Positions 4,114 to 61,679 of a DNA stretch of 64,000 nt are shown piece by piece (within the stretch, counting starts at the first letter, position 1; each line of letters starts with the position of its first letter). The notes below the pieces were generated by a model, which saw nothing but the letters and a program-made list of their open reading frames with translations, had not been told where the DNA came from and made no database searches. Source of the stretch: Taxillus chinensis (taxonomy: Eukaryota > Streptophyta > Magnoliopsida > Santalales > Loranthaceae). Made by a program: the position numbers and the translations under genes. The stretch spans positions 52,322,265 through 52,386,264 of the forward strand of contig CM042087.1 of the NCBI GenBank assembly GCA_023512835.1. The letters run 5' to 3'.

Positions 4114-5472
4114 GGTGTATATCTGTATCACACCTGAAACAATTAAGAAAACCTTTGACCTTCCTGTCCCTACTGATCACTTCCCTCAATTGATCTTAGG
4201 GGAGTATGGTACTGCCTTCAACTATGCAAAACGATCTGAGAGGAGGAGGCAGTTTATTGAAAATGGCTTTGCGGGTAAATTTAGATGTTTAGCTCATCTG
4301 GTAGGGAAGTGTTTGTTGTTGCAAACTAGTGGAAAGGATGGTGTGCCTATGACCCATCTTGAATTCATGTATAGCATTGACCATATGTTAGATGTGGACT
4401 GGGCTGCTGCCATTTTCAAATGGTAAACGAAAAACTTGACAAAGAGAGTATATGGAAGAATGCTATGTGTCATTTTTCAAAACCAATATGGCCAACACTT
4501 TACCTCTTTAGATAGCATCCCCTTCCCATCTCAGCAGCTTTTGAGAGTATTGCAACCAAAAGGAGGTTTAGGGGTAAGCTCTAGAGGCAATTGGGGGAAT
4601 GTTTCCCAAGCTGAACCACAGCCATCAAGGCACAGTGTTCATATGGAGAGACCCACTGATTTTGCTGAGCGAGACACCTCCACCCCATTAGATGAAAGAA
4701 AGCAGACCCTCTTCAGGCTCACTGCCATGTACATGCAGTTTAATGTGCATAAGGAAGATGTTTTCAACTTCTTTCAAGGTATTAGTGGCCAAGTGGTTAG
4801 TGAGGTGGAAGTTATAAATTGGGCATTCACCAATGGTCACATCAATGGTGCCCAATTTACTGAGTTAATGGCACTTATTTCACAAGATCAGCAGTCCAAT
4901 TCTAGACTGTCAGCCAAAGCATGGGAAGCTCCAGCAGCTCCTGTTGCTGTCTCTCATGATGCATGGAGGCAAGAAACTCAAGAGCTGAGAAGGGATCAAG
5001 CTGGAACAACGCGTGCAGTAGAAGAGCTAAAAAAAGACAACAAGGAAATAAAAGGGGTTCTGGGAAAAATTTGGAGGGCCTTGAGCAACAAGCACAATTC
5101 AAAAAATCTCCAGTAGTGGAGATATCTGATGAGGATGTACCTCCAGCACATGAGGACTCTGCTCTAGTACCTGCAACATACGACAGTTTCTACCCTGCCC
5201 AAGAAGAGTACCCTCCACCAGGGCCATCTGCGGAGTACACTGATTATCATCCATTTCAGCAGGACGCTGCACCGGAACCACACTACTCATCTTTTGATCC
5301 CTATGTGGACCTGGCCTATTCTCAGGCCATAGTGCCTGTTGTGCAACCTATTTCATGGGGGACTTATATGCCAGCTGCACCTCACGATTCACTGGAGAGC
5401 CGGTGCATCTGAGGATTAATCCGGTCATCTCTTCTGTGGAAGCTCAAGCGGAATTTGAGCGATTTATAGAAC
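4114..5472 (+). pseudogene. C element ORF, 5' part: plant transposon-protein-like domain and linker
   Basis: Cut at 4114 by A and at 5472 by B. From 4115 the frame reads ITPETIKKTFDLP, then GKFRCLAHLVGKCLL, then DVDWAAAIFKW. These line up by eye with ITPAVLRAALHLP, GRYRCMATILSRC and GLPMDWGMFLFRLL in ORF2 of B. A TAA at 4424-4426 interrupts, and the same frame resumes. A probable coiled coil follows (about 4960-5100: QELRRDQAGTTRAVEELKK) and an acidic, Pro/Tyr-rich linker in a shifted frame to 5412. A third frame runs into the B insertion and continues after it at 20539. The domain name is a visual assignment to the putative plant transposon-protein/mobile-domain class; function unknown. Confidence 0.65.
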
Positions 5473-6700
5473 TGATGGTCCCTTGGAGCCTAAAGGGGGG
5501 GGGTGAATAGGCTCTAATTAAAACTCTTTTCTTTCTCTCAAGACATAAACACTTATCTAGTTTAAGTGATAGAATCACTGCGGAAGATAACTAGATAGTG
5601 GAAGTATTTTGTTTTATTATCACGAGATGAATACAACAAAATAGAAGCAAAACTCTCTTACACTCTGTTTACAAATGAACTCACACTCTAGCCAAATTTT
5701 ATCTCCAAAGATGGAAAAACTCCTCTATCTTTTTGATAACGTACAAGTATGAATATTTATACAAAACATTCCTAAGAGACAACCTTGGAACTTGTAGTTC
5801 CGGAATGCGTTCAGCACTAACTATCCCTCGGTAATCTCTCTGCCTTGACTGCTGCGAATTGTGGAGCTCAAGATCTTGGATTTGAAGAGTATAAGTGTCT
5901 TTGTGAGTTCCCAGATACAATTAAGGTTGTGTCCACATATCCGGATGATCCACGTGTAAGATCCTTCAGGTTCTCAATAAATTTGTCTTATATCGGGACA
6001 CCACGAGCTGATAACTTTAAATGCGGTTTAGTTGAAGCAGTGTCTTCTTGGTCCGGTGTAATTTTCCTTACTCCGTAGCTAATGAAGCTCGGAACCTTAC
6101 TCCGTGTCAGTGATTGCTTACTCCGTATCTATTTAGTACCGGAATCCTTAGTCCATGTCAGCGCTTCCTTACTCCGCATGTAAATTCCTTACTCCGTATG
6201 TAAGTTCCTTACTCCGCATGTAAGTTCCTTACTCCACATGTAAGTTCCTTACTCCGGGCGAGTCTTGAAAAGTCTGATAACTTATTCCGTGTCAGCGCTT
6301 TCTTACTCCGCATGTAAGTTCCTTACTCCGTATGTAATTTCCTTACTCCGTATGTAAGTTCCTTGCTCCGTATGTAAGTTCCTTACTCCGGGCGAGTAAT
6401 AAATCCGGATTCCTTACTCCGCATCTGGTTTCCTTACTCCGCACTTATCCTTTAAGTTCTTAGTCCGTACGAATGTTCCTTATTCCGTATGTATCTGTTA
6501 CTTGGTTATTTACCAAGTGTTTGACGACACTCACTCTTGTCCGGATCAGGATTATGTATCCTGTCCTTAGCTTTGCTCTCACGAGTGCATTTCTGGATTA
6601 GTGACATATCTTCTGCAATGATCAAATAAACACAAAAGATCTCAGATCAAATTACATAAGGCTTTATCAGCATTATCCAAATTCTGGGTTTGATCCAACA
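5473..6700 (-). repeat. 3' LTR of copia B
   Basis: 1228 bp, from TGATGGTCCC at 5473 to CCAACA at 6700. The first bases are TGATGG rather than TGTTGG, so the terminal inverted repeat is imperfect, and the 5' LTR shows the same change. From about 6063 to 6491 it holds an array of roughly 20-bp units of type GTAAGTTCCTTACTCCG. A TATA-like TATAAATA (minus strand) lies at 5754-5761. Confidence 0.93.
6063..6491. repeat. TTACTCCG minisatellite in the B 3' LTR
   Basis: About 18 imperfect copies of a unit near CATGTAAGTTCCTTACTCCG, spaced about 20 bp in the cleanest part. The matching array in the 5' LTR is at 19877-20327, and related ones lie in the LTRs of A (3400-3905) and E (41707-42277, reversed). 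It lies in U3, upstream of the TATA-like box, so it could be an enhancer array; this is inference. Confidence 0.85.
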
Positions 6701-6712
6701 ATCTCCCCCAAT
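6701..6712 (-). other. Polypurine tract of copia B
   Basis: On the minus strand this reads ATTGGGGGAGAT directly against the LTR start TGTTGG, the expected position and composition for the plus-strand primer of an LTR retrotransposon. Confidence 0.88.
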
Positions 6713-6862
6713 TATGGATATGCCCAAACCTTTTGTAATCTGATCTGGTAAGCAATGCAAAAGAATAACATACAGAATACACAACACAACCAATTTCATT
6801 GATCAGCAACTAAATACAATTCAGCCTTAATACAAGTTTTTCACTAAGGTACATAAGGCTTA

Positions 6863-7582
6863 CTATACTTGAAGATCATAGTTCTTTGCCTTCTCTCTTA
6901 GCTCCATTGTCTGCTTCATCGTAAAGGTGGAGTGTTGGCTCCAATGTTTGTCCACAATTAAGAACGACTTGATGAAGTGACAGACAAAGGCTCCGCAGCT
7001 ATCCCCATCCGGCTGTTGTGGCACTTGCTTCTTGCCCCGGAATGTCGCCTTGAGTTTCTCAGTCCGACGTAGGGGTGTGATGCCCAACTCTTCATATAAT
7101 CCGGCTTTCTTCACGGCTTCAGTCAGCCTGAGACACAGAGGTTCCCATTGATTCTTCCTTACGAAGTGCTCCACAATCTGATGAGAATCAATGAGAATCA
7201 TTTGCTTGGACTGAATCATGAAGACAGCCATCATGAAGTGTGGTGACATGATCCGGTACGGAATGAGGATGGTTGAGAGAGTTTTCCATGGCTTGCTATC
7301 CTCAAGCCTTCCGTCGATGAAAGACTGAATTAGCTCCACACTGGGAAGATAGCCCTCATTCCAACATGGCAGAACGTCAAACAAGTGCCCATCTTCGTAG
7401 AGAGATGGAAACAGCCTCATCTCCATTTTAGCAGCTCTTGAGAAGTTGTCAATGTCTTTTGTAGTAAAGAGTCCTTTCTCCGAACAAAGAGTCTGAATGT
7501 CGGCCGGAGAGAAAGGGTACATTTCAGAAAGACATTTTCTCTCAGCAGAAGATGCAGCATAGGCTTTCATTGCCTTGAGCAA
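6863..7582 (-). CDS. Ulp1/SENP-like C48 cysteine protease domain, C-terminal part of ORF2 (copia B)
   Basis: 239-codon open segment, uninterrupted. The 7582 start is only the beginning of an open frame (TTG codon); the true protein should begin upstream at 9622. C48 signatures are clear: PHFMMAVF (His115 of the segment), LIDSHQ (Asp132) and QQPDGDSCGAFV (Gln190 and Cys196, six residues apart as in Ulp1/SENP proteases). The H-D-Q-C set is complete, so the domain could be active. Family members cleave SUMO or related modifiers from target proteins in the nucleus or cytoplasm. It is the last coding segment before the purine tract. Known precedents are Ulp1-like domains captured by plant DNA transposons; a copia host is unusual to my knowledge. 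Confidence 0.85.
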   Translation of the reverse strand: MLKAMKAYAASSAERKCLSEMYPFSPADIQTLCSEKGLFTTKDIDNFSRAAKMEMRLFPSLYEDGHLFDVLPCWNEGYLPSVELIQSFIDGRLEDSKPWKTLSTILIPYRIMSPHFMMAVFMIQSKQMILIDSHQIVEHFVRKNQWEPLCLRLTEAVKKAGLYEELGITPLRRTEKLKATFRGKKQVPQQPDGDSCGAFVCHFIKSFLIVDKHWSQHSTFTMKQTMELREKAKNYDLQV

Positions 7583-8894
7583 GCTTCCATCCGCATCAGA
7601 CGGGTCAAACTCCGCATAGGATGGGAGGAAGGTATCAGCTGCGGATGAGGAGGATGGAGGAGGAGCTGGAGCTGCAGAGAGGAGCTTGGTTGAGAAAAGC
7701 GGCTTCGTTTGGGAATTTGAACTCCCCGAAGCACCGGAGTGGCGGGCCGCTTCTCGGTCCGAGTAGATGGTTGTGGTGCAGAAGGAGCAGACGGATCAAA
7801 TGGCACTCTCTCCCCCGGTTTGGCAGATCGCTGGGAAGCAACAGGAGGACGAGCCATCGTATGCGCCAGATCCGCGAAGGAAGTAGACAATGAATGGACA
7901 GAGGTGGCGACAAGATCCATTTTCTGCTCCATAGAAGTGGAGGAGTCAGTGAGAGCGGAGAGGAGTTGGGCGCCGAGGGCATCAACTTTGGCAGCGATAG
8001 CGGAAATTTGGGCGCTTTGAGCTTGGGCGTGTCGGTCCAGCTGGGCGGAAAGCACAGCGTCGGAGTGGACCATGCCAAAAGAGGCACGCCCAAGGACTAA
8101 CTCCGGAGCTTTGGAGGACTCCCCCGCATGAACAGGAGCAGGAGTGCGGTGGGCAGAGGAGTCCGCAGGAGTATCAGCAGCAGCAGGAGCATCCGGAGCA
8201 TCAGAGGCATCCGGAGCATCGGAGGCATCCAGAGCAAGGGAGGCATCCGGAGCATTGGAGGCATCCGGAGCAAGGGACCCGCTGTGACCAGATAAGTCAA
8301 CCACGGGAATCGCGGCGGCAGTAGAAGAGGGTCCAGCCTTAGCAGGGGAAGGACTCGTGTAGCGAGGGCCGGGCCGGAGGGTGTAGGGAATGGCACATCG
8401 GGAATGGCGGCCGGCGTAAGAAAGCCGTGGTCCAGGTTCCGGATGATCATGGTCTCCGGGGATTGGGTATTGCGTGTGTAAAACACCCGGAGGTCGGTGT
8501 CGAGAACGAGAGGAGGTGTGGGCTAGGGCGATACGGAGCCAGGGTCCGTTAAGGTGTCGGCGGAGAGATGGTCAAGGTAATCTCGGGGTTGAGGTAGGGG
8601 AGGCAAAGGGGCTTCCAGGAGAAGCGACCAGGACATCGGCGGTGGCGACGAATAAGCGGTATGAACCGCGGCGGCTATAGCGGATGTGGAGGGAGTGGGG
8701 ACATTAGCAGCGAGAGGGGGCCGAGGAGACAGCTTTAGACGCACTGCGCCGAGAGGGCCCCGCAACCTCGGACGGTTCAACACGGACGCTTGGGCGGGAG
8801 GCCCTTGAGTGGGAGGGTGCGAAGAACGGACCGAATCCGGGAGGATCGGTGTGCGAACCGACCTCGTGGGCTTGGCTGTCGGAGGGGTCACCAC
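7567..8894 (-). pseudogene. ORF2 linker region with coiled coil (copia B)
   Basis: Joins the N-terminal domain to the protease but is split over several frames. 8523-8894 is Pro/Ala/Ser-rich and ends YLDHLSADTL. Then comes NLDHGFLTPAAIPDVPF (around 8400-8450), and 7567-8304 holds a DASDAPDA-type repeat, HTPAP-like linkers and a probable coiled coil (QLDRHAQAQSAQISAIAAKV, about 7970-8040). The same order occurs in E, where more of it is in one frame, so the ancestor was one long ORF. The low-complexity repeat of GGAGCATCCGGAGCATCGG type lies around 8190-8280. Frames change near 8890, 8500, 8300 and 7570. Confidence 0.75.
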
Positions 8895-9622
8895 AGAGCC
8901 GCCTTGTTGTTCGAGGCGGGGAGAATACGGAGAGCTACGATGGGTCGGCGAGCGGTCATGTTCCCGTCCGGCGTAAGGTAACGAAGGTAATAAGCCGAGG
9001 GAAACGAGACAAGATCAAATCGGGCGAAATGGTCCGGACGTAGATCTTGGGAAGACAATGCGAGGATGCGCCCGAAGGAATGGTTTTTGGGACCATTCTG
9101 CAGCAAACGAAATAAAAACATCCCCCAATCCATCGGAAGACCTTCAAAAACGCCGTACATGGCCAGGGAGAAGGTCGTACGGAACGGAGTCCAGGGCGGA
9201 TGTGCGAGCCGAGGGCATCGACTTAGAATAGTCGCCATACATCGATAGCGACCCTGGAAGGATTTCACCTTGTATTCCTTCCCTTTGTTCGTGCAACCCA
9301 TAGAAGCCGCCATTGGATCGGCATCTGGGCGCTGTGGTTCACCAAGAGGTAGGTGGAGAGCAGCGCGGAGAACCGCCGGAGTGATGATGATGGATTCACC
9401 GCGGACATAAGAGGTTATGGAATCGGTGGTGCAGCGAATCCGTTGGTAATACTCAAGAATGTCATCGATCAGAACATCGACGGGATTGGAGACCAGGCTG
9501 AGTATATGCGAGGCTTCAAGGAGAGGGCGAAGCTGGAAAAACCAATCCGGAGGATTAGAAACAGCATTCCAATCAACTAGATGGCCAGGATTAACACCGG
9601 AAAGAGAGATTCTGGGTGCCAT
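8888..9622 (-). CDS. ORF2 N-terminal domain, plant transposon-protein-like (copia B)
   Basis: Start is a real ATG (MAPRISLSGVNPGHLVDW), conserved in E at 58803. The 244-residue segment has LLEASHILSLVSNPVDVLI, then ITPAVLRAALHLPLGEPQRP, then FQGRYRCMATILSRC, then GLPMDWGMFLFRLLQNGPKN. The pattern resembles the N-terminal helical domain of plant transposon-associated proteins that often precede Ulp1-like domains. The segment also lines up with the ORF of element C, and ends by frameshift at 8888. I see no signal peptide or membrane segment, so it does not look like an envelope protein. Role unknown; a DNA-, RNA- or host-protein-binding role is only a guess. Confidence 0.7.
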   Translation of the reverse strand: MAPRISLSGVNPGHLVDWNAVSNPPDWFFQLRPLLEASHILSLVSNPVDVLIDDILEYYQRIRCTTDSITSYVRGESIIITPAVLRAALHLPLGEPQRPDADPMAASMGCTNKGKEYKVKSFQGRYRCMATILSRCPRLAHPPWTPFRTTFSLAMYGVFEGLPMDWGMFLFRLLQNGPKNHSFGRILALSSQDLRPDHFARFDLVSFPSAYYLRYLTPDGNMTARRPIVALRILPASNNKAALW

Positions 9623-9738
9623 TGCAGATTGGATGGGAAGGATAAGAGGAAAGGTGAGGTCTTGATAGTGGAAGGAGCAACGAGAGGTTTAGGGATTTGA
9701 AATGAGCAATACTCGTGCTTTGCAGGAATGATCAGAAC

Positions 9739-9747
9739 ATATAAGAC
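9739..9747 (-). promoter_or_regulatory. TATA-like box upstream of ORF2 (copia B)
   Basis: Minus strand TCTTATATG, about 120 bp before the ORF2 ATG at 9622. In E the same place reads TTATATAT (58685-58692). It could be a promoter for a separate ORF2 transcript; the sequence match alone cannot prove it. Confidence 0.35.
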
Positions 9748-10720
9748 CGAGTCCGCAAATGTCAGCGGGTCTAGGAATGTGCGAGTGAGATAGGGACCCG
9801 CGCGACATGCTGATGTCATTAGTCTGGATATCGAGGCGTCTCTGAATGAAACGATGTCGTGGAGACCGCATGACCAAGTAGAGATTACAACTGGTTGCCA
9901 TCCAGAGAAGTGTGTGTGCAACCCGAGATATGCATTTAATGAATCATCATTATTCCTCCTCAAAAGCATGCGACATATGAGTATACGTGGATTGTCACAA
10001 TTGATAATGTCAGGAGTCCGGAGGAAAGAGCCGACACTCATCCGGGGTAAATAATATTCGTGAAAGAGTATCCGGATGAATAATAGACCTTGTCCGTCGT
10101 AAACAGAGTTTGGTGAGAGAGTAGAGTAGATTCCTTTGCAGTCAAAAAGTCGAAGAGAAGAGAAGTACCACAACACTTCAAATCCGAGACTATGGACTGG
10201 ATTTATCGATACGGTTGCAAAGAAAATCTGAACCTGTAGCTAAATAAAGATATACTGAAAATACAAAAGCTTAACAGGCAAGGATTAGTACGGATTAGAG
10301 ATAATAAGCAGTGAAAAACAACATAATCCGAACTAATGAGAAACAGAACTCATGCATGGCTAAGAATGTAGTAGACTTATGCAACGTGAAAGTGATCAAG
10401 ATTACTGAATCGGGGCATATGTCGGGATAAGAATACACGAGTTCATATAGGTCAACATAAGTAAACCGTCTTGCTGAACAACGTAGCTAAGATTAATTAA
10501 AGAGCATATGATTTGGCCACATTAGAATTCATGAGTGAACAATGATAGAGCGAACACATGTCAAAAGAAAGCAAATGATTAGTCGATTAAAATGCATGGT
10601 TGAAGAAGGAAAATACATCCAAACATGCCACTTTTCTGATTCAAAACAGCATGTCCAGTCAGATCTGGAAGTAAAAGTTTAGAGGAGGGAGAATCCGAGA
10701 CATATTAGGGGTTCATTGCT

Positions 10721-10842
10721 GCTCCCCCGTAGATCATTTAATCCCCTCAAAGAAAAGCTCCCCCTTGACAAGTCAGGAAAGAGGTCATGAGACATATACG
10801 GGGGTATTACTTGAATAATATATAAAGCATTTTCTCCCCCGT
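10721..10842 (-). other. Three internal polypurine boxes (copia B)
   Basis: On the minus strand three GGGGGAG boxes occur: CTACGGGGGAG (10833-10842 side), CAAGGGGGAG (10757-10767) and CTACGGGGGAG (10721-10730 side). E has three boxes at the same relative places (57581-57590, 57661-57671, 57698-57707). Multiplied purine tracts downstream of RNase H are known in Sireviruses, which supports the lineage call. Confidence 0.75.
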
Positions 10843-11282
10843 AGATTGTGCAATCCTCTCGGTTGACCGTTTCGATTTGTAGAAGTTCGATCTTGTCATC
10901 TTATTAGAAAACTATACTTGTAAGTGATCAGATCATGAACGAGTATTCATCCACCAGGCATTCCAAGCTAGCCCATTTCACTTCTTTCAACTATGCATGT
11001 TAATAGAGTAATCTAAATGAACATGCTTTTGTCATGTGGTGATTAATGGTAGTTAAGATCATGAACCCGAAAGAGGTAAATCATATAAGCCTGTAATTAT
11101 GTTAGCTTTAAATGACTTGATCGGGAAAGCAAGCATCCTTCCATATATGAGGTTGAGATTAATATCGAAACATGAAACCATTAAACAAGAAGTATGATCA
11201 GCAATACAATTGAAGTTTCTACTACTTTCAGGAAATGTACAATGCATGGTCCGAGAGTAAATATACTATTGGGTAATTCAAA

Positions 11283-11780
11283 TGTGAAGCTATCTTTGAG
11301 AAGTCGAGCATACCTAATCGGAAGAGTAGTTCGAAAACCTGGCATCAGGTAGGGGCTTTGTAAGTATGTCCGGCTAATTGATCTTCGATGGCAACATGTT
11401 CCAGCAAAATATGCTTTTTTGAGAACATGATCGCGTATGAAGTGATACCTGACCTCAATGTGCTTCGTCTTAGGATGCATGACAGGATTGTTGCTGATGG
11501 CAATTGCACTAGTGTTGTCACAATAAAGTGGAATAGAGGACATGTCGAATCCGTAGTCAGTAAGTTGACTTTGCATCCAAAGTAGCTGTGCGCAGCAACT
11601 TCTGGCAGCTATATATTCCGCCTCAGCGGTAGAGGTTGATACGGAATTCTGCTTCTTACTGAACCATGAGATCAATCTATTTCCTAGAAACCGACACGTC
11701 ACGTTGTGCTTTTCCTTGTCGATGCGACATCCAAATGGGTCGGCATCGAAATATCCAGGATAAGGTGAAGTTGGACTCCT
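11283..11780 (-). pseudogene. RNase H of copia B
   Basis: Copia-type RNase H, which removes the RNA strand during reverse transcription. Visible motifs are SVSTSTAEAEYIAARSC, LYCDNTSAIAISNNP and TKHIEVRYHFIRDHV (11400-11660). It is joined to RT by a frameshift near 11700-11780, and another frameshift near 11385 leaves the end (LGMLDFSK) in a different frame. The end of pol is placed by comparison with E. Confidence 0.85.
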
Positions 11781-12903
11781 TTGGGTACCAGAGTCCCAAA
11801 TTCATCGTTCCCTTGAGATACCTTAATATCCGTTTAACATGAAGCATATGTGACTCCTTGGGATTCGCCTGGTATCGTGCACAGATGCAAGTTGCAAACA
11901 TAATGTCTGGGCGACTTGCTATAAGATACAACAAGGATCCGATCATCCCTCTGTAGCCAGTCACATTTACTGATATGCCATCCACATCCGGATCTAACTT
12001 GGCACTTACAGACATGGGAGTTTTGACGGGAGATGAGCCTTCCATACCAAACTTCTTAATAAGATCGCGAGTGTACTTAGCCTGATTAATGAAGATTCCT
12101 TCCTTTAATTGTTTAACTTCTATTCCAAGGAAGTAGGACAGTTCTCCCATCATGCTCATTTCAAATTTGTCTGTCATCAACTTAGCAAACTCTTCACAAA
12201 GCTTCGGATTCGTTGATCCGAAAATGATATCATCCACGTATATTTGTACGATCAGAGTGTGTCCTTTCTCTTTTCGTAGAAATAGTGTGGTGTCTATCTT
12301 CCCTTTTTGGAAGTTATGAGCAAGTAGGAATTCTGACAGTGTGTCGTACCAGGCTCTTGGGGCTTGCTTCAAACCATATAGAGCTTTCTAAAGTTTGTAG
12401 ACAAGATGTCTTGCCTTAGGTTCAATGAAGCCGGGAGGTTGTTCAACATACACCTCCTCTTGAAGGTCTCCATTTAGGAATGCGCTCTTGACGTCCATTT
12501 GATAAACTATGAAGTTTTCATATGAAGCATACGCCAGAAACATTCGGATTGCCTCAAGTCTTGCGACCGGAGCAAAGGTTTCATCATAATATATTCCTTC
12601 TTCTTGACGATATCCTTTGGCTACCAGTCTGGCTTTGTTCCGGATTACTATTCCATCCGTATCAAGCTTGTTCCGGAACACCCATTTAACGCCAATGACT
12701 TGATGAGACTTAGGCCTTGGTACTAAGGTCCACACATTATTTCTCTTAAATTGATTCAGCTCTTCTTGCATGGCTTCTATCCAATTCGAATCTTGAAGAG
12801 CTTCATCTACCACCTTTGGTTCTATTTGAGATAGAAAACACGAGTAAAGACTCATGTTGGAGGTAGCTGCTCTTGTTCTTACACCAACGAGTAGGATCAC
12901 CAA
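11781..12903 (-). pseudogene. Reverse transcriptase of copia B
   Basis: Copia RT (RVT_2 type). It starts with [20 protein letters not shown], then [46 protein letters not shown] (first catalytic Asp), [13 protein letters not shown] and YVDDIIFGS (12220-12245), so the catalytic aspartates are intact. A single TAG at 12388-12390 (between LVYKL and KALYG) splits it into two open pieces. With B and E sharing over nine residues in ten by eye, E is its closest relative here. Confidence 0.9.
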
Positions 12904-13097
12904 TCACTTGATCCGAGGGATGGTTTCGGGTCCATCTATAATTCTTGCATATGTTGGTTGATCTTGAACAATTTGAAGCTCTTCCAGTTGGGTGGTTCAA
13001 TTGTATCGACTGGTTGAGCTTCGTCCGGACTAGATGTTTCCGTATTGAGAGGTATGGATGAACTAGTTGGTTCTTCAACACTTGTTTCTTCCAAGTG

Positions 13098-14078
13098 TTA
13101 ACTAGTCCGGACGGACTTGAAGGTGCTCCGAATTTTGTGTATCCGTAGGAGTATGTCCGGAGCTAAATGATAGTCCGGTGTCGAGTCATCCGTAGCATCA
13201 TCCATAAAGTTTCGTTGTGTTTCGCTGATGCCACGTGGTTGGTCGGGATATGTAACGGGAATATTCATAAACTTCGAGTAATCGACGTTGCTTGTCCATG
13301 ACCTGCATATTGGAATTTGAAGAACCGACTTTTGACCAATTGAGATTTGCTTCATCAAAGGTCACATGGATAGATTCTTCAACTTTAAAAAGTTTTCTAT
13401 TAAAGACCCGATAAGCCTTGCTATGTAGTGAGTACCCGACAAAAAATCCCATCATCGTTTTTTGGTTCAAACTTATTCCGGGTCTCTTTGCCATTGATCG
13501 GTATATGCAAGTACACCCAAAGCTCCGAAATGTGAAATTGAAGGTTTTCGTCCTCTCCACATCTCATAGGGTGTTTTCATGGTAGATTTATTTATTAGAG
13601 TTCCGTTTCCGAACATAGCAGGCAATGGACACAACTTCAGCCCATGGGCGAGAGGAAGCGTTGCCCCTGCTAACATGGATCTACCAGCTTCAACTAAAGT
13701 ACGATTCTTGCGCTCGGCTACCCCATTTTGTTGTGGGGTTCGGGAGAGCAGAGAAGTCATCTTGTATGCCCTGTTCAGAACAATATGATCTCATTTCGAA
13801 AAATCAAATTACGGACCATGATCACTCCTGATGCATTTAATGCTCGGTCCTTGTGAGTTGCTTATCCAGTGAAGAGATCTACAAGATGCTCAAAAGTTTG
13901 ATCCTTTGATTTCAGGAACATCACCCATGTGTATCTGGTGAAATCATCGATAACCACAAGGGTATATCTCGACTGACTAGAGATGGAACGGATATAGGAC
14001 CACGAGAGGTCCATATGAAGAAGTTGTAGAGGAGCCAGTTATTGAGTTAACCGATTTGCTCTTAAAGCCGTGTTTGGT
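13098..14078 (-). pseudogene. Integrase core of copia B, decayed
   Basis: The core is spread over frames: the TLVVIDDFTRYTWVMFL-type stretch near 13900-13990, then RTPQQNGVAERKNRTLVEAGRS (13650-13740), which holds the third catalytic residue Glu. Next come STMKTPYEMWRGRKPSISHF and a C-terminal segment with NRKLFKVEESIHVTFDEANL (13340-13400). Several short indels and stops (near 13830, 13480, 13360) break it. It would insert the cDNA into the host chromosome; this copy cannot make a whole enzyme. Confidence 0.85.
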
Positions 14079-14675
14079 CTATTTACCAAGTTGGCATTCT
14101 CGACAGAGAGAGTCTCTGGAGAACTTGAGTTTGGGTAGACCAGTGACAAGATCAAGTGACGCTAATTTAGACAAAGTCTTAAAGTTTAAATGTGCGCATC
14201 GCTTATGCCATAGCCAACTATCTTCATCTGATGCTTTCGTGAGGAAGCATACAGGGTTAGAAGAATTATTTCTTAAGACCACTGAGTATATGTTCCCATC
14301 TCTTGATCCGGATAACTTAACATCTCCGGATAAGTTTTCTCTTACTGTACAGGTGTTGGACAAAAAGGAAACAGTAAATCCTTTATCACATAGATTACTA
14401 ACACTTAGCAAATTATGCTTTAAACCTTCGACTAGTGCAACTTTAGTGATTGATACACAGCCGTTAGTTAAAGTGCCATACCCGACAGTCTTACCTTTCT
14501 TGTTGTCGCCATATGAAACGGATGGACCTTGTTTATCATTAACTTCTACAAGCAGAGTCTGATCACCCGTCATATGTCCGGAGCATCCACTATCAAGGAT
14601 CCACTTGCTTTTATTGATCTTTAACTTCAAGTGATCCGGCAATGCATTCCAGAGATGCTCCTGAAAGACAACAAG
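14079..14675 (-). CDS. Protease and pre-integrase domain of copia B
   Basis: Open for 188 codons (14079-14642). Aspartic protease active site WILDSGCSGHMTGDQ at about 14560-14605, then the integrase HHCC zinc-binding region: HKRCAHLNFKTLSKLASLDL with CRECQLGKQ near the 3' end. The frame is continuous with gag except for the TAA at 14676-14678. This is the best preserved protease in the A/B/E family here. Confidence 0.87.
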   Translation of the reverse strand, partial: LVVFQEHLWNALPDHLKLKINKSKWILDSGCSGHMTGDQTLLVEVNDKQGPSVSYGDNKKGKTVGYGTLTNGCVSITKVALVEGLKHNLLSVSNLCDKGFTVSFLSNTCTVRENLSGDVKLSGSRDGNIYSVVLRNNSSNPVCFLTKASDEDSWLWHKRCAHLNFKTLSKLASLDLVTGLPKLKFSRDSLCRECQLGK

Positions 14676-16217
14676 TTACACTTTTGGTGCCCAAACTTGT
14701 TTCAGGCGGTTAGAGAGAGCAGCGAGATTGTCAACATTTACTGGATTTGATTTTGCTAGGACTCTTAGCTTTCCAAGTTGACATTAACTTGTTAGTTTCA
14801 GCTACTTCTTTTATTTGGGTTTTCTTGGGAGAGACACTCCTTTTAGATTTAGATTTTGTTTTGCTCGAAGAACCCCTTTTATAAAACCGATCTTTATTGG
14901 ATTGAAATTGATTACAAAGCCAGCTATCGGATAGACTCCAACATTCATAGTGATAATGACCCATTTCCCTACGGATGGAACAGACACTATAATGTGAAGT
15001 ACAAACAGGGGATACAGGTCTCTTAGATTCTACAGATTTTCTACTCTGTTCCCTGTGGCCTAATCCATTGCGTTTGGGTGACGCGTTCTTGGCCCTAAAT
15101 GCGTCAGCCTTAGCCTTGTCTTTCTTTTTGGGTGCTACAGTTTTGGCTTTAACTGCAGCGACCTTCCCTTAATCTTTAGTTATGGGTGCTTCTTGGTTCG
15201 GGAAGTGCGATGGCACCTCGACCACAATCATAAACTATGGTGCCACCTGAAATGAAACCATCCAACGGTTTAGATGTACTAACAGGATATAAGTTGGTTA
15301 GTTTAGGAGTGAAATCCGGAGGACACTCAGTAGCTTGAGCTATGGAAGTTGATGGTTCGGAACCTAGGCCAGGTTTGACTCGGATGTCGTCAGGATCAGT
15401 CCTAAAGGTAGAGGCTATTCCCCCGGATTTTAGCCACTTGCGGTTTATTTCCTTTTCCTGTTCCAGTTCATTTTCGAGTCTTTTTACTATAACTTTTAGG
15501 CCTGAGAGATTGGTATTTAACAAATGATTTTCAGCTCTTAGATCATGATACCAAGCTTCTTTTCCTCTGAAGTTAGTGATGTCCTTTTCGAGTCTATTAA
15601 TAGTAAATTCAAGACGTTTATTCTGACTTTCCATATCTTTGTACATTTGAGTAATTATTAGTCTCTCATTTTTTTCGTGATCACATGCAGTAGTAAGAGA
15701 TTCTAATTTACTCAGGAGCTCAGAGATAGAAGGTACCTCAGTATTTGCCATGAGGCAGACGTTCGGCTTAGTAGTCAGCTCATCATCCGAGGATTCCTCC
15801 TCTTCTTCCGAGCCACTCATGTATTTTGTCACGAGCGCCTTCCTCTTGCTCTTGCTGTTATCTGAGGTGGAGCGGCGAGGAGTTACCTTGTCACTTTTCT
15901 CAGCCACTTTTGTTTTGGACCTGCATTCCTTGGCCCAGTGACCGGTTTTCCCACAGTTGAAACATTCCTGGGAACTGGACTCCGGTCACTCCTTCCTTTG
16001 GAACGATGATGATAAGCGTCTTCTGAACCCTTTTTTGCTTTTCCGTAGGAATCGCTCAAAGGATTTGACAAGAAGGGCTATCTCTTCCTCCTCGTCAGAA
16101 TCAGAATTGTCGGATACGTCCGTATCATCATTCCTCAGTATGTTTAGACATTCTGTAGCTTTGAGAGCTACCCCCTTTTCTTTCCGAGCTATTTTCTCAT
16201 CCCTGTCAGAGTACTTA

Positions 16218-19266: not shown

Positions 19267-19281
19267 CTTGCTCTGATACCA
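19267..19281 (-). other. Primer binding site of copia B
   Basis: Minus strand TGGTATCAGAGCAAG, complementary to initiator tRNA-Met, two bases from the LTR end. Confidence 0.9.
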
Positions 19282-19283
19282 CT

Positions 19284-20533
19284 TGATGGTCCCTTGGAGC
19301 CTAAAAGGGGGGGGGGTGAATAGGCTCTAATTAAAACTCTTTTCTTTCTCTGAAGACAGAAACACTTATCTAGTTTAAGTGATAGAATCACTGCGGAAGA
19401 TAACTAGATAGTGGAAGTATTTTGTTTTATTATCACGAGATGAATACAACAAAATAGAAGCAAAACTCTCTTACACTCTGTTTACAAATGAACTCACACT
19501 CTAGCCAAATTCTATCTCCAAAGATGGAAAAACTCCTCTATCTTTTTGATAACGTACAAGTATGAATATTTATACAAAACATTCCTAAGAGACAACCTTG
19601 GAACTTGTAGTTCCGGAATGCGTTCAGCACTAACTATCCCTCGGTAATCTCTCTGCCTTGACTGCTGCGAATTGTGGAGCTCAAGATCTTGGATTTGAAG
19701 AGTATAAGTGTCTTTGTGAGTTCCCAGATACAATTAAGGTTGAGTTCACATATCCGGATGATCCACGTGTAAGATCCTTCAGGTTCTCAATAAATTTGTC
19801 TTATATCGGGACACCACGAGCTGATAACTTTAAATGCGGTTTAGTTGAAGCAGTGTCTTCTTGGTCCGGTGTAATTTTCCTTACTCCATAGCTAATGAAG
19901 CTCGGAACCTTACTCCGTGTCAGTGGTTGCTTACTCCGTATCTATTTAGTACCGGAATCCTTAGTCCGTGTCAGCGCTTCCTTACTCCGCATGTAAATTC
20001 CTTACTCCGTATGTAAGTTCCTTATTCCGTATGTAAGTTCCTTACTCCGCATGTAAGTTCCTTACTCCGCATGTAAGTTCCTTACTCCGGGCGAGTCTTG
20101 AAAAGTCTGATAACTTATTCCGTGTCAGTGCTTTCTTACTCCGCATGTAAATTCCTTACTCCGTATGTAATTTCCTTACTCCGTATGTAAGTTCCTTACT
20201 CCGTATGTAAGTTCCTTACTCCGGGCGAGTAATAAATCCAGATTCCTTACTCCGCATCTGGTTTCCTTACTCCGCACTTATCCTTTAAGTTCTTAGTCCG
20301 TACGAATGTTCCTTATTCCGTATGTATCTGTTACTTGATTATTTACCAAGTGTTTGACGACACTCACTCTTGTCCGGATCAGGATTATGTATCCTGTCCT
20401 TAGCTTTGCTCTCACGAGTGCATTTCTGGATTAGTGACATATCTTCTGCAATGATCAAATAAACACAAAAGATCTCAGATCAAATTACATAAGGCTTTAT
20501 CAGCATTATCCAAATTCTGGGTTTGATCCAACA
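19284..20533 (-). repeat. 5' LTR of copia B
   Basis: 1250 bp, TGATGGTCCC at 19284 to CCAACA at 20533, matching the 3' LTR with only scattered substitutions and small repeat-number differences. TATA-like TATAAATA (minus) at 19567-19574. TTACTCCG array at 19877-20327. The right TSD AGAAC follows at 20534. Confidence 0.93.
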
Positions 20534-20538
20534 AGAAC

Positions 20539-21227
20539 CTAGGGTGCTGCAGGCTCGCTTTGTAAGGGACATGGACATCTTCACATCTGACTTCTTACGG
20601 CGGATTTCAGGTAATGAATTTTTATGTACAAATGATGTGGATTTATTTTGCAGGACCATGCGATTCGTAGTGGAGGCTGAGCCTCATGATTATCCGTTGG
20701 CCCAGTACACGTCTATTATGCTGTGCGAGTTATACGAGCACCCCTTGTCTGAAACTGTTCTACGTCAGCACATGAATGGTGCGAATGAAGGCCACTGACC
20801 CTGGCGCACCGTGCATGAGGTACTAATACCTGTACACATTGACCACCATTTTGTCTTAGTGTATTTGGATTTGAGTGTAGGGCATGCAGTGCTGTATGAT
20901 CCCAGTCAAGGCCATGGGTTTGGAAGAAGAAAGAGACAGCTTGTTCATGGCTTCATGAAACGAATCAAAGACGCCATGACGAAAGAGGGGTTGTTGCAGA
21001 GCAAATTACCTCTGATTCACCTCATTGAAATGGAATTCCCTCAACAGCCTGACTAGTTCAGCTGTGGGATTTTTGTTTGCTATTATTTACTGGCTATCCT
21101 GCAGCACAGAGATAGTTGGGCGGTCCGCGGCGAAATTTCAGCTGATTTTGTGACTCGGGTGCGGAGAATGGTGGCCCAAGTGATATACTATTATAGCTTA
21201 CTAGCAGATAGGTCAGGTTCTTCTTAA
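20539..21227 (+). pseudogene. C element ORF, 3' part: Ulp1/SENP-like protease
   Basis: Continuation of the ORF interrupted at 5472; the frame carries on across the AGAAC duplication. The N-terminal part reads RFVRDMDIFTSDFLRRISG. The C48 protease signatures follow: HIDHHFVLVYLDL (His codon 20847-20849), LYDPS (Asp 20898-20900), QQPD, then FSCGIFVCYY (Cys 21063-21065). Two nonsense codons in one frame, TGA at 20796-20798 and TAG at 21054-21056, break it. The natural end is TAA at 21225-21227. All catalytic positions are still readable, so it decayed after a functional period. Confidence 0.8.
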
Positions 21228-22765: not shown

Positions 22766-22884
22766 TGATAACGTACATTTATGCCGTTATTCTAGTGCAT
22801 ATTTAGGGTATTAAAGAGCATGATTAGAGCTTAATTTATCCATATTTCTTAGATATTTGCTCTAACACCCTAAGAAGACTACTT

Positions 22885-32321: not shown

Positions 32322-32329
32322 TATAAAAA
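32322..32329 (+). promoter_or_regulatory. TATA box of the D 5' LTR
   Basis: TATAAAAA in GGCCTATAAAAAGCAAGG; the same sequence occurs in the 3' LTR at 41205-41212. Confidence 0.65.
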
Positions 32330-41494: not shown

Positions 41495-42922
41495 TGTTGG
41501 ATCAAGCCCAGAATTTGGATAATGCTGATAAAGCCCTATGTAATTTGATTTGAGACCTTTGTTGTTTTATCTTAAGTCATTGCAGAAGATATAACCTTCA
41601 TTCGTATCTACACTCGTATGAGCAAAGCTAAGGACGGGATATTTAATCCTGATCCAGGTGAGAATGACTGTCGTCAAATACTTGGTAAATAACCAAGTCT
41701 TTACCTCATATGGAATAAGGATCATTCGTGCGGAGTAAGAACCTAAAAGCTACGGACTAAGAAATCCGCACCTAATACTTCAAACGGACTAAGTCTAAAA
41801 GATGCGGAGTAAGAATCTTAGTCTACAAAGTCGCACGGAATAAGAGAGTCAATGCGGAGTTAAAAAGATCAGTTTTCCACTTAACTAGACTAAAGTACAG
41901 AAGACACGGAGTAAGGAATCCGAGTCGTCCATACATGCGGAGTAAGGAAGTACTTCTACGGAATAAGGACTTGAGTCTTTATTAGAGGCGGAGTAAGGAA
42001 GCTAGATGCAGAGTAAGGAATCCGAACCACTCACTCATGCGGAGTAAGGATGTGCTGATACGGAGTAAGCCATCCGTTCCTTTAACTCATGCGGAGTAAG
42101 GAAACTAGTTGCGGAGTAAGGAAGCGCAGATGCGGAGTAAGCACTCCAACCTTCTCTTTCATATGGAGTAAGGAAGCGCTTACTCGGAACAAGGATTCCA
42201 GCACCAAATTGATACGGAGTAAGCAATCAGTATTACGGAGTAAGGATCCGAGCTTAATTTAAGCACGGAGTAAGGAACCTTACACTGGATTCATGAAAAC
42301 GCTACTTCAACTTATCTCTTCGTGATCAAAGTGATCAGCTCGCTGTTTCCCAATGTAAAACAAACTTGTTGAGAACCTAAAGCATCTTACACGTGGATCA
42401 TCCGGATATGTGGACACAACTTTAACTACGCTTGGGAACTTACAAAGACTCTCACGCGTTGCAAACCCAAGATCTTGAAGACCACATCCGCAACAATTAA
42501 TGCAGAGAGATTTCCGAGAGACAGTAAATGGACACAATATCCGGAACAACAAGTTCCGAGGTTGTCTCTTGAGGATGTCATTATAAATAGCAACACTTGT
42601 ATATTTATAAAAAGGGACTTCTTTGTAAACAAAAAAAAAAGGCGTACATGTACAAAAGCTCACAGAGATCTAAGAGGCTAGTGTGTGTGTACTTGTAAAT
42701 GGAGTGTTAAAGAGTTGTTAAGTAGGTCTAAAAGCTTTCAAGCTTTAGACTGCTTTCATTTTGTTGTACTTATCATACTGATAATAAAACAAAATACTTC
42801 CACTATCTGGTTATCTTTCGTATTGTTTCTATCTCTTAACCAGATAAGTGTTGTGCCAAAGACTTAGGAAAGAGCTTTGATAAGAGCCTATTCACCCCCC
42901 TCTAGGCTTCAAGGGACCAACA
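41495..42922 (+). repeat. 5' LTR of copia E
   Basis: TGTTGGATCAAGCCC to GGGACCAACA, 1428 bp. The U3 array of CGGAGTAAGGA words runs 41707-42277 (the reverse of TCCTTACTCCG in A and B). TATA box TATAAATA at 42582-42589. CACCCCCCTCTAGG run near the end. Confidence 0.93.
42582..42589 (+). promoter_or_regulatory. TATA box of the E 5' LTR
   Basis: TATAAATA in GTCATTATAAATAGCAAC, repeated in the 3' LTR remnant at about 61342-61349. It follows the CGGAGTAAGGA array, the normal order of enhancer then core promoter in U3. Confidence 0.65.
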
Positions 42923-58802: not shown

Positions 58803-60985
58803 ATGGCACCCAAAACTTCCCTTTCCGGCATTAACCCTGGCCATCTGGTTGATTGGCGTGCTATCTCCGATCCTCCAACTTGGTTTTTGGACCTTCGCCC
58901 CCTTCTAGAAGCCTCTCACATCCTAAACCTGGTCTCCAACCCTATTGACCTTCTCATTGAAGACATCTGTGAGTTCTATCAACGGATCCGCTGCACCACG
59001 GACTCCATTATCCCCTACGTCCGCAGTGAATCCATATTGATCACCCCTGCTGTCCTCCGTGCCGCACTCAATCTACCTCCCGGTGATCTTCAGCGCCCGA
59101 ATGTTGAGACAATGGCTATTTCCATGGGTTGCTCTTATAAGAGGAAGGAGTACAAAATGAAGTCTTTTCAAGGTCGCTACCGGTGTATGGCGACCATATT
59201 GAGTCACTGCCTCCTGGCTCGTACCACTGCTCTGGATTCTATCGCGTACAACCTTCTATGTACGGCGTCTTTGAGCGTCTCCCGATGGACTGGGGGACTT
59301 TCTTGTTCCGACTGTTGAAGAACGGTCCAAAGAACCACTCTTTTGGGCGGATACTCAGCACTGTCTTCAGGCATCTACATCCGGACCATTTTGCCCGATA
59401 TGATGTCGTTCCTTTCCCTCAGGCTTATTATCTTCACCATCTTATGCCTGATAGAAACATGACAGCTCGCCATCCCTCGGCTGCTCTCCGCCTTCTTCCT
59501 ACCTCAGAACAACAAGGCAGCTCGATTGGTGACCCCTTCGACAGCCGTGCCCCCGAAGTCAGCTCTACTCACCGGTCCTCCTGGATTCAGTCCGTTGTTG
59601 CTCCCTCCATCTCTCGAGCCTCGCAGCACAGCTTTCGTGCCGACCCTTCTAAGGTTGCGGGACCATCTCAGCCCAGTTTGCCTACGACTGTTTCCCCAGC
59701 ACCATTTGCTGCGGATGTCTCCACTCCCTCCACTTCCGCTGTTGCTGCCGCAGTTGATGCTGCCGTTGCCACCACCGTCGCTGATGTCCCGAAATCTCTT
59801 CCGGAAGTTCCCTTGCCTCCTCTCCCTTAACCCAAAGACTACCTAGACCATCTCTCCGCCGACACCCTAATGGACCTATGGTTCCGATTTAGCCTCGCCT
59901 GCACCGCCTCCATCCCCGACGACGACCTCAAGGTGTTTTATGCCAAACACACCCGCACCCCAGAGGATATGATTGTCTGGAATCTGGATCATGGCTTTCT
60001 TACGCCTACCCACATTCCGGAGGTTCCCTTTGCTGTCTCCTCCAGAAAAGCCCTTGACGCACAGGTTCCCTCCCCTGCTAAGTCTCGGTCTGCCTCTCCT
60101 GCAGATGCCATCCCGGTTGTTGACTGTCCTGGTCATAGTGGCTCGCTCTCCTCCGGAAGCCTCTGATGCTCTGGATGCCCCCTCTACTACTGTTGCTGAC
60201 GCCCACTTCACTCCTGCAGACTCCTCTGCCCAGCACACACCTGCACCTATTCTTGCCGGGGAGTCCTTTAAAGCTCCGGAGTTGGCGCTTGGACGTGCCT
60301 CCTTTGGCACGGTTCACTCCGATGTTGTGTTGTCTGCTCAGCTAGACCGTCACGCCCAAGCTCAAACCGCCCAAATCTCTGCCATTGCCGCTAAGGTTAA
60401 TGCCCTTGGTGCCCAACTCTTCTCCGCCTTAACCGATTCTTCCACCTCCATCGAGTAAAAGATGGAGATGAGGTTGTTTTTGTTCCTATACATGGACAGG
60501 CACATGTTTGACATCTTGCCTTGTTGGAATGAAGGGTATCTTCCAGACTTAGCCGATATTCAGACATTCATAAATGGAACTGTTGAGGATAGCATCCCCT
60601 GGAAGACTCTGCAATTCGTCCTCATTCCATACCGGGTCATGACGCCGCACTTCATGGTGGTTGTCTTTATGATTCCGTCCAAGCAGCTGATTCTAATTGA
60701 TTCCCATCAAATTATGGAGCAAAATGTTAGAAAGAATCAATTTGAGCCTCTGCGTATTCATCTGACGGAAGCCGTAAAGCAATCGGGCCTTTATGAAGAA
60801 AGAGGCCTACCATCATTGGGTCCAATTGAAAAGCTCAAGGTGACAGTCCGGAGCAAGAAGTTAGTACCACAATAGCCTGATGGAGATAATTCAGGAGCTT
60901 TTGTCCTGTCTTTTTTATCAAATCTATTGTCAAGGTGGATAAAAACTAGAACAGCATCCAAGCCTACACAATGGAGCAAGGATCC
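58803..60985 (+). pseudogene. ORF2 of copia E: N-terminal domain, linker, broken Ulp1-like protease
   Basis: ATG of MAPKTSLSGINPGHLVDW. The N-terminal domain is open to 59318 but frameshifts near 59210; the frame at 59183-59830 continues it (RLPMDWGTFLFRLLKNGPKN) and runs into the Pro/Ala/Ser linker to a TAA at 59828-59830 (CAA in B). NLDHGFLTPTHIPEVPFA and the coiled coil AQTAQISAIAAKV follow. About 0.5 kb of linker and protease start is missing at 60456-60465. The protease keeps PHFMVVVF and LIDSHQ, but has a TAG at 60873-60875 and Ser (TCA, 60891-60893) where B has the catalytic Cys. Its 3' end is lost at the LTR junction. Confidence 0.85.
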
Positions 60986-61679
60986 GAGCTTACACAACGG
61001 AGTAAGGATCCGAGCTTAATTTAAGCACGGAGTAAGGAACCTTACACTAGATTCAAGAAAACGCTACTTCAACTTATCTCTTCATGATCAAAGTCATCAG
61101 CTTGCTGTTTCCTGATGTAAGACAAACTTGTTGAGAACCTAAAGCATCTTACACATGGATCATCCGGATATGTGGACACAACTTTAACTACACTTGGGAA
61201 CTTACAAAGACTCTCATGCGTTGCAAACCCAAGATCTTGAAGACCACATCCGCAACAATTAATGCAGAGAGATTTCCAGAGATAGTAAATGGACACAATA
61301 TCCGAACAACAAGTTCCGAGGTTGTCTCTTAACGATGTCACTATAAATAGCAACACTTGTATATTTATAAAAAGGGACTTCTTTGTAAACAAAAAAAAGG
61401 CGCACATGTACTAAAGCTCACGAGATCTAAGAGGCTAGTGTGTGTGTACTTGTAAACAGAGTGTTAAAGAGTTGTTAAGTAGGTCTAAAAGCTTTCAAGC
61501 TTTAGACTGCTTTTATTTTGTTGTACTTATCATACTGATAATAAAACAAAATACTTCCACTATCTGGTTATCTTCCACATTGTTTCTATCTCTTAGCCAA
61601 ATAAGTGTTGTGCCAAAGAGTTAGGAAAGAGCTTTGATAAGAGCCTATTCACCCCCTCTAGGGCTCTAAGGGACCAACA
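60986..61679 (+). repeat. 3' LTR remnant of copia E
   Basis: Begins within the CGGAGTAAGGATCCGAGC array, equal to about 42234 onward of the 5' LTR, and runs to CCAACA at 61679. The first half of the LTR and the purine tract are deleted. The junction shows a doubled GTAAGGATCCGAGCTTA / GCAAGGATCCGAGCTTA word, suggesting short-homology recombination. TATA box near 61342-61349. Confidence 0.88.

What the first reader, a model, noticed from the sequence alone, without database searches (positions are those of the whole stretch)
6863..9622. Copia retrotransposon with a built-in Ulp1/SENP-like protease ORF in the env-like position
Element B carries, between RNase H and the 3' LTR and on the coding strand, an ORF2 made of an N-terminal plant transposon-protein-like domain, a coiled-coil linker and a C48 protease with His, Asp, Gln and Cys all present at family spacing (Gln to Cys six residues). 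Sireviruses are known to have env-like ORFs here; a SUMO-protease-like module in this place is not something I know to be described. It is flanked by the element's own spacer and purine tract, so it is part of the element and not a later insertion. A plausible role is reversing SUMO-dependent silencing or processing element proteins; this is inference.
Basis: partly seen in the sequence, partly recalled or inferred. Interest (0 to 1): 0.88.

Follow-up and report, generated by a model that had tools for sequence, protein, structure and literature searches.

The report
Retrotransposon "env-like" gene encodes a protease
In this plant genome, the extra "envelope-like" gene carried by two unrelated kinds of jumping gene turns out to encode the same kind of protein, ending in an enzyme domain of the family that removes the small tag SUMO, which offers a testable answer to the old question of what these plant envelope-like genes do.

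Summary
Element B (window 5473-20533, minus strand) is a Sirevirus-type Ty1/copia insertion with LTRs, PBS, PPT and a GTTCT target duplication. The stretch 7582-6863 is a Ulp1/SENP (C48) domain: Pfam 24.7 bits against a cut-off of 20.7, with His, Asp, Gln and Cys in place. In this copy ORF2 is broken by frame changes; other copies have stop-to-stop frames of 895-1,059 codons. I found at least four diverged ORF2 families with one layout (weakly Transposase_32-like N-domain, coiled-coil linker, C48). Families 1, 2 and 4 lie behind Copia RT and/or RNase H, family 3 behind a Ty3/gypsy (Athila-like) gag-pol. Element B itself sits inside a family-3 ORF2. N-domain and C48 are under purifying selection (dN/dS mostly 0.1-0.2), and the four catalytic residues are invariant in 7 aligned members of families 1-3. 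So the env-like ORFs of both superfamilies are homologous here and look like cysteine proteases. Activity, SUMO specificity and an anti-silencing role (as in VANDAL VANC/KIU) are inference. Ten searches of the held open-access library listed no paper that I saw describing this.

The parts
19284..20533 (-). 5' LTR of element B (TGTTGG...CCATCA)
   Evidence: 1250 nt; 14 substitutions to the 3' LTR in 1228 aligned columns, 22 gap columns
5473..6700 (-). 3' LTR of element B
20534..20538 (-). target-site duplication copy GTTCT (5' side)
5468..5472 (-). target-site duplication copy GTTCT (3' side)
19271..19281 (-). primer binding site TGGTATCAGAG of element B
15176..15985 (-). gag zinc-knuckle part of element B
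   Evidence: name by reading, no family scan run
11181..14675 (-). PR-INT-RT-RNase H region of element B (several broken frames)
   Evidence: by reading; one search used its RT and RH as queries
9623..11180 (-). spacer with GGGGGAG tracts at 10840, 10764, 10728 and a TACTAAT...CAG acceptor-like stretch near 10290-10255
8888..9622 (-). ORF2 N-domain (weakly Transposase_32-like)
   Evidence: B/C dN/dS 0.13 in frame
7583..8887 (-). ORF2 proline/serine/alanine-rich linker with coiled-coil stretch, frames shifted in this copy
6863..7582 (-). ORF2 C48 (Ulp1/SENP-like) cysteine-protease domain; His 7240-7238, Asp 7189-7187, Gln 7015-7013, Cys 6997-6995
6703..6710 (-). terminal polypurine tract TGGGGGAG followed by AT/TG
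41495..42922 (+). 5' LTR of sister element C
58860..59491 (+). element C ORF2 N-domain
60459..60932 (+). element C C48 remnant: Gln codon is a stop, Cys is Ser, 3' part lost
60997..61679 (+). element C 3' LTR (partial)
4115..4735 (+). element D (Athila-like, family 3) ORF2 N-domain
   Evidence: 4139-4735 is 85% aa identical to L046
4910..5394 (+). element D ORF2 coiled-coil linker, interrupted by element B
20541..21212 (+). element D ORF2 C48 domain (two in-frame stops), resuming on the far side of element B
22766..22800 (+). probable start of element D 3' LTR (TGATAACG) after a TTGAGGACAAGCAA motif
   Evidence: that the motif is typical of Athila-type elements is recalled

Best explanation
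The env-like ORF2 of these plant LTR retrotransposons encodes a two-domain protein: a target- or partner-recognition N-domain joined by a coiled-coil linker to a C48 cysteine isopeptidase. Shown here: the layout, its homology across Ty1/copia and Ty3/gypsy elements, purifying selection on both ends, and conservation of the catalytic residues. Inferred: it is an active protease; it strips SUMO (or another ubiquitin-like tag) from host or element proteins; and it thereby counters SUMO-dependent repression of the element. It would work like the Ulp1-bearing VANC (KIU) proteins of VANDAL MULEs, with the N-domain choosing the target. My odds step by step: conserved C48-type ORF2, 0.95; catalytically active in open copies, 0.85; acts on SUMO/UBL conjugates, 0.55; main role is anti-silencing, 0.4.
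For: C48 above the Pfam cut-off (20.7) in all four families: family 1 at 23.7-27.1 bits (4 proteins), family 2 at 50.3 and 52.1, family 3 at 47.9 and 49, family 4 at 60.9-66 (5 places). 20 invariant columns among 7 sequences of families 1-3 include His, Asp, Gln and Cys. The profile reaches SENP1 1.2e-8, SENP2 4.7e-5, SENP5 9.3e-5, yeast Ulp1 7e-4. dN/dS between B and C: N-domain 0.13, C48 0.16. Within families: 0.08-0.22 in 12 of the 19 C48 pairs, the other 7 giving no value (synonymous change saturated); 0.17-0.39 in 4 of 4 N-domain pairs. N-domains of Copia family 1 and Athila-like family 3 match at E 9e-24, C48s at 5e-24. Precedents: KIU/VANC proteins carry Ulp1, and KIU-bearing VANDALs escape silencing (PMC13317346, passages); in yeast lower SUMOylation derepresses Ty1 (PMC8585004, abstract and one results section).
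Against: No activity or expression data. SUMO-interacting motifs are not shown to exceed shuffled linkers. DUF1985, the N-domain I recall for VANC/KIU, was not found in this genome (the tool warns that this does not show absence), so kinship with VANC is not shown. The review itself says that the function of Ulp1 in those elements is unknown. C48 includes enzymes that act on other tags; the profile also reaches bacterial deubiquitinases/deneddylases at about 2e-5. The structure model is unusable (mean pLDDT 36.5). The early linker (8887-8523) shows no frame with clear constraint (dN/dS 0.58-1.00).
Confidence: 0.45

Rival explanations
1. The ORF2 protease is a second maturation enzyme: it cleaves element proteins (Gag, Pol or ORF2 itself), as the C48-like proteases of adenoviruses and African swine fever virus do (recalled).
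For: C48-type folds serve as viral maturation proteases (recalled). The domain is encoded in cis at the 3' end of the element and kept under selection about as strong as pol.
Against: An aspartic protease seems present already (Athila-like L046: Asp_protease_2 21.1 bits and gag-asp_proteas 18.1 bits, both below their cut-offs; none scanned for B). The best solved match is a SUMO protease. No Pfam scan of the N-domain gave a gag or capsid family.
Confidence: 0.2
2. It is a deubiquitinase or deNEDDylase that protects element proteins from proteasomal turnover rather than a SUMO protease acting on chromatin.
For: The C48 profile also hits Dub1-type deubiquitinases/deneddylases at about 2e-5. Ginger1 transposases carry either OTU or Ulp1 (PMC2836005, passages).
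Against: SENP1 is the best match (1.2e-8); no direct test.
Confidence: 0.25
3. It is a true envelope/movement protein for cell-to-cell spread.
For: Position downstream of pol and the historical 'env-like' name (PMC2829016, PMC7264820).
Against: No transmembrane segment by hydropathy: highest 19-residue Kyte-Doolittle mean 1.60 in the 5 ORF2 proteins scanned. A protease domain with the catalytic residues kept.
Confidence: 0.05
4. Passenger: a host ULP gene piece was captured and carried along without function.
For: Plant LTR elements do capture host genes (PMC13317346, passages; PMC7264820, part 1 of 3).
Against: Four diverged families keep the same two-domain layout; dN/dS mostly 0.1-0.2; catalytic residues invariant between families 1-3.
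Confidence: 0.03
5. Chance match or nested insertion of another transposon.
For: Family 1 alone scores only 24-27 bits. In L040 and L042 Gypsy pol, not Copia, lies upstream; I read it as an insertion, untested.
Against: Same place and strand in B, C, L039 and L041, and in family 2, and in the Athila-like L046; hits up to 66 bits; no second set of repeats around ORF2 in the window self-comparison (matches of 120 bases or more).
Confidence: 0.01

Closest known systems
Sirevirus (SIRE/Maximus) env-like ORF / eORF-3'F (PMC6317226, PMC2829016)
   Same: Sense ORF between pol and 3' LTR; PPT octamer 10 bp before the 3' LTR, extra PPT copies, poly-C before the LTR end.
   Different: Neumann et al. [quoted passage not shown] here three Copia ORF2 families are homologous and end in C48.
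Athila 3' aORF with Transposase_32 in sunflower (PMC11728184)
   Same: Passages seen: an Athila 14 sense aORF has partial similarity to PF20167 and a nuclear localisation signal; my N-domains match the same model weakly (6 of 8 at E<=1).
   Different: 'protease' and 'SUMO' have 0 occurrences in that main text; no link to Copia in the passages seen.
KIU genes: VANC proteins with Ulp1 in VANDAL MULEs (PMC13317346)
   Same: Mobile-element protein with a Ulp1 domain; escape from silencing reported for VANC/KIU.
   Different: DNA transposon; DUF1985 (the N-domain I recall for it) not found in this genome.
Ulp1 domains in Ginger1 transposons and NeSL/Utopia non-LTR retrotransposons (PMC2836005, PMC4640811; passages)
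   Same: Ulp1-like cysteine protease coded by a mobile element.
   Different: Fused to the transposase or to the RT protein; not a separate ORF in an LTR retrotransposon.
SENP1/SENP2/Ulp1 SUMO proteases
   Same: Catalytic His, Asp, Gln, Cys aligned to SENP1.
   Different: Distant; substrate untested; extra N-domain and linker of a different kind.

Membership tests
Peptidase family C48 (Ulp1/SENP) | Profile match above curated cut-off | tested here: met
   24.7 bits vs 20.7 for the window copy; 47.9-52.1 in families 2 and 3; 60.9-66 in family 4
Peptidase family C48 (Ulp1/SENP) | Catalytic His-Asp-(Gln)-Cys in family order | tested here: met
   Invariant in 7 of 7 sequences of families 1-3. In the 30 best-scoring family-1 places, the window copy included: His 30/30, Asp 30/30, Cys 29/30, oxyanion Gln 28/30. 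Element C has lost Gln and Cys
Peptidase family C48 (Ulp1/SENP) | C48 fold in a structure model | tested here: inconclusive
   AlphaFold2 with 2 sequences, mean pLDDT 36.5; no fold search run on it
Peptidase family C48 (Ulp1/SENP) | SUMO isopeptidase/endopeptidase activity | not testable with these tools
   needs an enzyme assay
Sirevirus (Ty1/copia) | INT before RT, Copia RT (RVT_2) | tested here: met
   RVT_2 113.7 bits in L041, whose RT pieces are 94-96% identical to B's; INT before RT in B is by reading
Sirevirus (Ty1/copia) | AGGGGGAG PPT 10 bp before the 3' LTR, extra PPT copies, AT/TG site, poly-C near the LTR end | tested here: met
   TGGGGGAG-AT-TG at 6710-6699 (one mismatch in the octamer), AGGGGGAG at 10765, GGGGGAG at 10840 and 10728, C-run near LTR ends; criteria from PMC2829016
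Sirevirus (Ty1/copia) | RT phylogeny with reference Sireviruses | not tested
   no plant reference set among the tools used
Ty3/gypsy (family 3) | Gypsy RT, RNase H and integrase downstream of gag, ORF2 after INT, one strand | tested here: met
   L046: Retrotrans_gag, RVT_1, RT_RNaseH, Integrase_H2C2, then N-domain and C48
Athila clade (family 3) | Clade placement by RT | not tested
   the label Athila rests on recalled sequence motifs
VANC/KIU (VANDAL MULE) | DUF1985 N-domain | tested here: inconclusive
   PF09331 gave 0 matches in the own genome, 1 candidate scored, and rang in no control genome, so the tool does not count this as absence; no DUF1985 among Pfam hits of 8 N-domains
VANC/KIU (VANDAL MULE) | Lies in a MULE with a transposase gene | tested here: not met
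   neighbours are RT, RNase H or integrase of LTR retrotransposons
Transposase_32 (PF20167) | Score above curated cut-off 45 | tested here: not met
   best 23.6 bits, E 5.3e-5; 6 of 8 N-domains match at E<=1
Retroviral-type envelope | Transmembrane segment | tested here: not met
   max 19-residue hydropathy 1.60 in 5 ORF2 proteins; no dedicated predictor was run

The most novel reading that the evidence does not exclude
The 'env-like' genes of plant LTR retrotransposons, in both Ty1/copia Sireviruses and Ty3/gypsy Athila-type elements, are not envelopes but one mobile cassette: a recognition domain plus a SUMO/UBL protease that works as an anti-silencing factor and has been exchanged between the superfamilies, with the Ulp1-bearing VANC genes of DNA transposons as a third instance of the same strategy.
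Probability: 0.35. Interest if true: 0.92.

Novelty: new variant of a known kind. Interest (0 to 1): 0.8.

Why it matters
Papers on these ORFs call an envelope function in plants controversial or speculative (PMC7264820, PMC6317226). A shared catalytic domain replaces that debate with an enzyme that can be assayed. It would link hundreds of scored retrotransposon places in one genome (perhaps thousands of copies) to the SUMO/UBL pathway, give plants a second case of transposon-coded anti-silencing proteins, and show a gene cassette shared between Copia and Gypsy elements.

Tried and rejected
Structure prediction of the window's C48 domain (B and C only) gave mean pLDDT 36.5, so no fold search was run. 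Public protein searches with the domain (109 candidates, none at E<=0.001) and with the 7-sequence alignment (1499 candidates, none at E<=0.0001) found nothing; I suspect that the collection is poor in plants. A viral-contig scan found 45 pattern matches, none confirmed. I proposed SUMO-interacting motifs in the linkers from reading, then dropped them: 3 of 5 linkers had a match, but shuffled linkers had one in 4-36% of cases. Kinship with DUF1985/VANC: no DUF1985 match. The C48 tree (19 rows) holds the core of each family together, but the deep order of Copia, Athila-like and family 4 is unresolved (bootstrap 58-60, long-branch warnings), so I make no claim on the direction of exchange. A splice acceptor upstream of ORF2 (TACTAAT...TTTTCAG) is only partly kept in C, L039 and L041, so I leave it open.
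Full report
What was checked. The finding names 6863-9622 (minus strand) as an ORF2 with a C48 protease in the env-like place of a Copia element. The ORF listing shows that this copy is not a single frame: 9688-8888, 9014-8523, 8571-7567 and 7795-6863 are successive overlapping frames. The last of these matches Peptidase_C48 at 24.7 bits, above the curated cut-off of 20.7; the first matches Transposase_32 only weakly, 12.5 bits against 45.

The element. Element B has LTRs 5473-6700 and 19284-20533 with 14 substitutions in 1228 aligned columns (K2P 0.0115), a 5-bp duplication GTTCT on both sides, a TGGTATCAGAG primer site and a TGGGGGAG-AT-TG terminal purine tract. The spacer after RNase H holds further GGGGGAG tracts. 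These are Sirevirus marks listed in PMC2829016 (passages), with one mismatch in the terminal octamer. B carries a 2.2-kb insertion in its gag part (about 16218-18455). Element C (from 41495, plus strand) is a sister at 75-90% nucleotide identity over the coding pieces. It keeps the same ORF2, with a decayed C48 whose Gln codon is a stop and whose Cys is Ser.

Selection. Between B and C, counted in B's frame, dN/dS is 0.13 (bootstrap 0.07-0.18) for the N-domain and 0.16 (0.08-0.22) for C48. It is 0.43 for the later linker (8522-7916), while the early linker (8887-8523) shows no clear frame (0.58-1.00 in the three frames). Gag and pol pieces give 0.11-0.49, the spacer 0.62-0.76 in all three frames, and wrong frames of coding pieces 0.42-3.10. 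Synonymous divergence is higher in the two ORF2 domains (1.2-1.3) than in gag-pol (0.23-0.47), which hints at a mosaic history. Among the 30 best-scoring family-1 places (the window copy is one), pooled pN/pS is 0.19 over 435 pairs; variants shared by two or more copies are mostly synonymous (31 N: 60 S), singletons mostly not (101: 61). That sample was chosen by protein score and so leans to conserved copies. Within families, 12 of 19 C48 pairs give 0.08-0.22; in the other 7 synonymous change was saturated and no value was computed; 4 of 4 N-domain pairs give 0.17-0.39.

How many. The own genome (521 Mb, 264 contigs) gave 150 scored places for family 1 out of 9180 first-look candidates, 150 of 3698 for family 2 and 143 of 7429 for family 3. 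The scored numbers are lower bounds set by the tool; the candidates are loose. In one search, 5 of 150 places lie in an open frame of 850 codons or more with no stop inside the match.

Four families, two superfamilies. A search with the Pfam model (150 scored of 4308 candidates) led to other C48 loci, of which I looked at part: L001-L008 and the regions fetched as L043-L049. Family 2 (L043, 1059 codons; L044, 844 codons with only the end of the N-domain) lies on the same strand behind Copia RNase H or RT in 2 of 2 loci. Family 1 does so in B, C, L039 and L041, 4 of the 6 copies with enough flank; L040 and L042 show Gypsy pol there, which I read as an insertion. Family 3 is in a Ty3/gypsy element: L046 carries Retrotrans_gag, RVT_1, RT_RNaseH and Integrase_H2C2, then the N-domain and C48 (49 bits), all on one strand. 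L045 shows the same integrase tail upstream (read by eye). For the C48 copy in L047 and for the window's element D, the upstream part lies outside what I held. So pol was seen in 2 of 4 family-3 loci. Family 4 has Copia RT upstream in L049; L048 has no match to the RT, RNase H and integrase queries in its 5 kb upstream, so 1 of 2. L005 and L007 are diverged relatives of families 3 and 2 and were not followed further. The label Athila for family 3 is recalled; the tools show Ty3/gypsy.

Homology. The Copia family-1 and Gypsy family-3 N-domains match at E 9e-24 (33% over 131) and the C48s at E 5e-24 (27% over 221). Family 1 and family 2 match along most of the protein (E 7e-33). Families 2 and 4 share the N-domain at E 8e-41. 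In a 7-sequence C48 alignment of families 1-3, 20 columns are invariant, among them the four catalytic ones. A profile of it finds SENP1 at 1.2e-8, then bacterial deubiquitinases, SENP2, SENP5 and yeast Ulp1.

The window shows it three times. Element B has inserted into a family-3 ORF2 (element D, plus strand): N-domain 4115-4735, linker 4910-5394, C48 20541-21212 beyond B. So one 64-kb window holds three C48-bearing ORF2s (B, C, D) from two superfamilies; all three copies are broken.

How it most likely works. A soluble-looking protein (no transmembrane stretch by hydropathy) with a conserved N-domain, a coiled coil and a cysteine isopeptidase is best read as a targeted deconjugase. The precedent is the Ulp1-bearing VANC (KIU) genes of VANDAL transposons, which the review PMC13317346 (passages) describes as letting related elements escape silencing, while noting that the function of the Ulp1 domain there is unknown. 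In yeast, decreased SUMOylation raises Ty1 transcription (PMC8585004, abstract and one results section). This makes anti-silencing by deSUMOylation the leading idea, at about 0.4-0.45; maturation protease and deubiquitinase remain open.

Literature. Ten searches of the held open-access library turned up no paper that I saw to describe a C48/Ulp1 domain in an env-like ORF of a plant LTR retrotransposon. 'Sirevirus'+'Ulp1' gave one review whose passages do not link the two; 'Athila'+'Ulp1' gave 3 papers, 'Ulp1'+'LTR retrotransposon' 17, and the broad search 22. Of all these I saw passages of PMC13317346, PMC2836005, PMC4640811, PMC5821449, PMC6317226, PMC2829016, PMC2820488 and PMC11728184, part 1 of 3 of PMC7264820, and the abstract and one section of PMC8585004; the rest only as listings. 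PMC11728184 reports Transposase_32 in a sunflower Athila aORF, and its main text never mentions a protease or SUMO; the part of PMC7264820 that I read reviews env-like ORFs without naming C48. Subscription papers and database architecture pages were not searched.

Limits. Only one plant genome was seen; its species was not identified. The wider claim for other plants rests on literature marks of the same ORF class, not on data here.

Noticed in passing
L048:1439-2362 (G000:C2, about 27.76 Mb): An open frame that reads like a geminivirus Rep helicase part (recalled motif) lies about 3 kb upstream of a family-4 C48 gene; the C48 domain there has an identical copy in opposite orientation about 19 kb away (L003/L004).
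   Followed up: no
L001 (G000:C191:93103-96594): A C48 gene with a near full-length Pfam match on a short contig; by its look perhaps fungal contamination of the assembly (not tested).
   Followed up: no
window 16218-18455: A 2.2-kb insertion in the gag part of element B with a 5-bp overlap; about 90% identical pieces of it occur in L044.
   Followed up: partly
window 46976-55470: A large element with 1.9-kb terminal repeats (95.6% alike) and 37-bp tandem repeats, nested in element C between its integrase and RT.
   Followed up: no
window 31440-41436: A Copia element with three AGGGGGAG tracts just before its 3' LTR but no ORF2 seen: a Sirevirus-like relative without the module.
   Followed up: partly
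window elements B and C: Synonymous divergence of the two ORF2 domains (1.2-1.3) exceeds that of gag-pol (0.23-0.47), as if ORF2 and gag-pol had different histories.
   Followed up: partly
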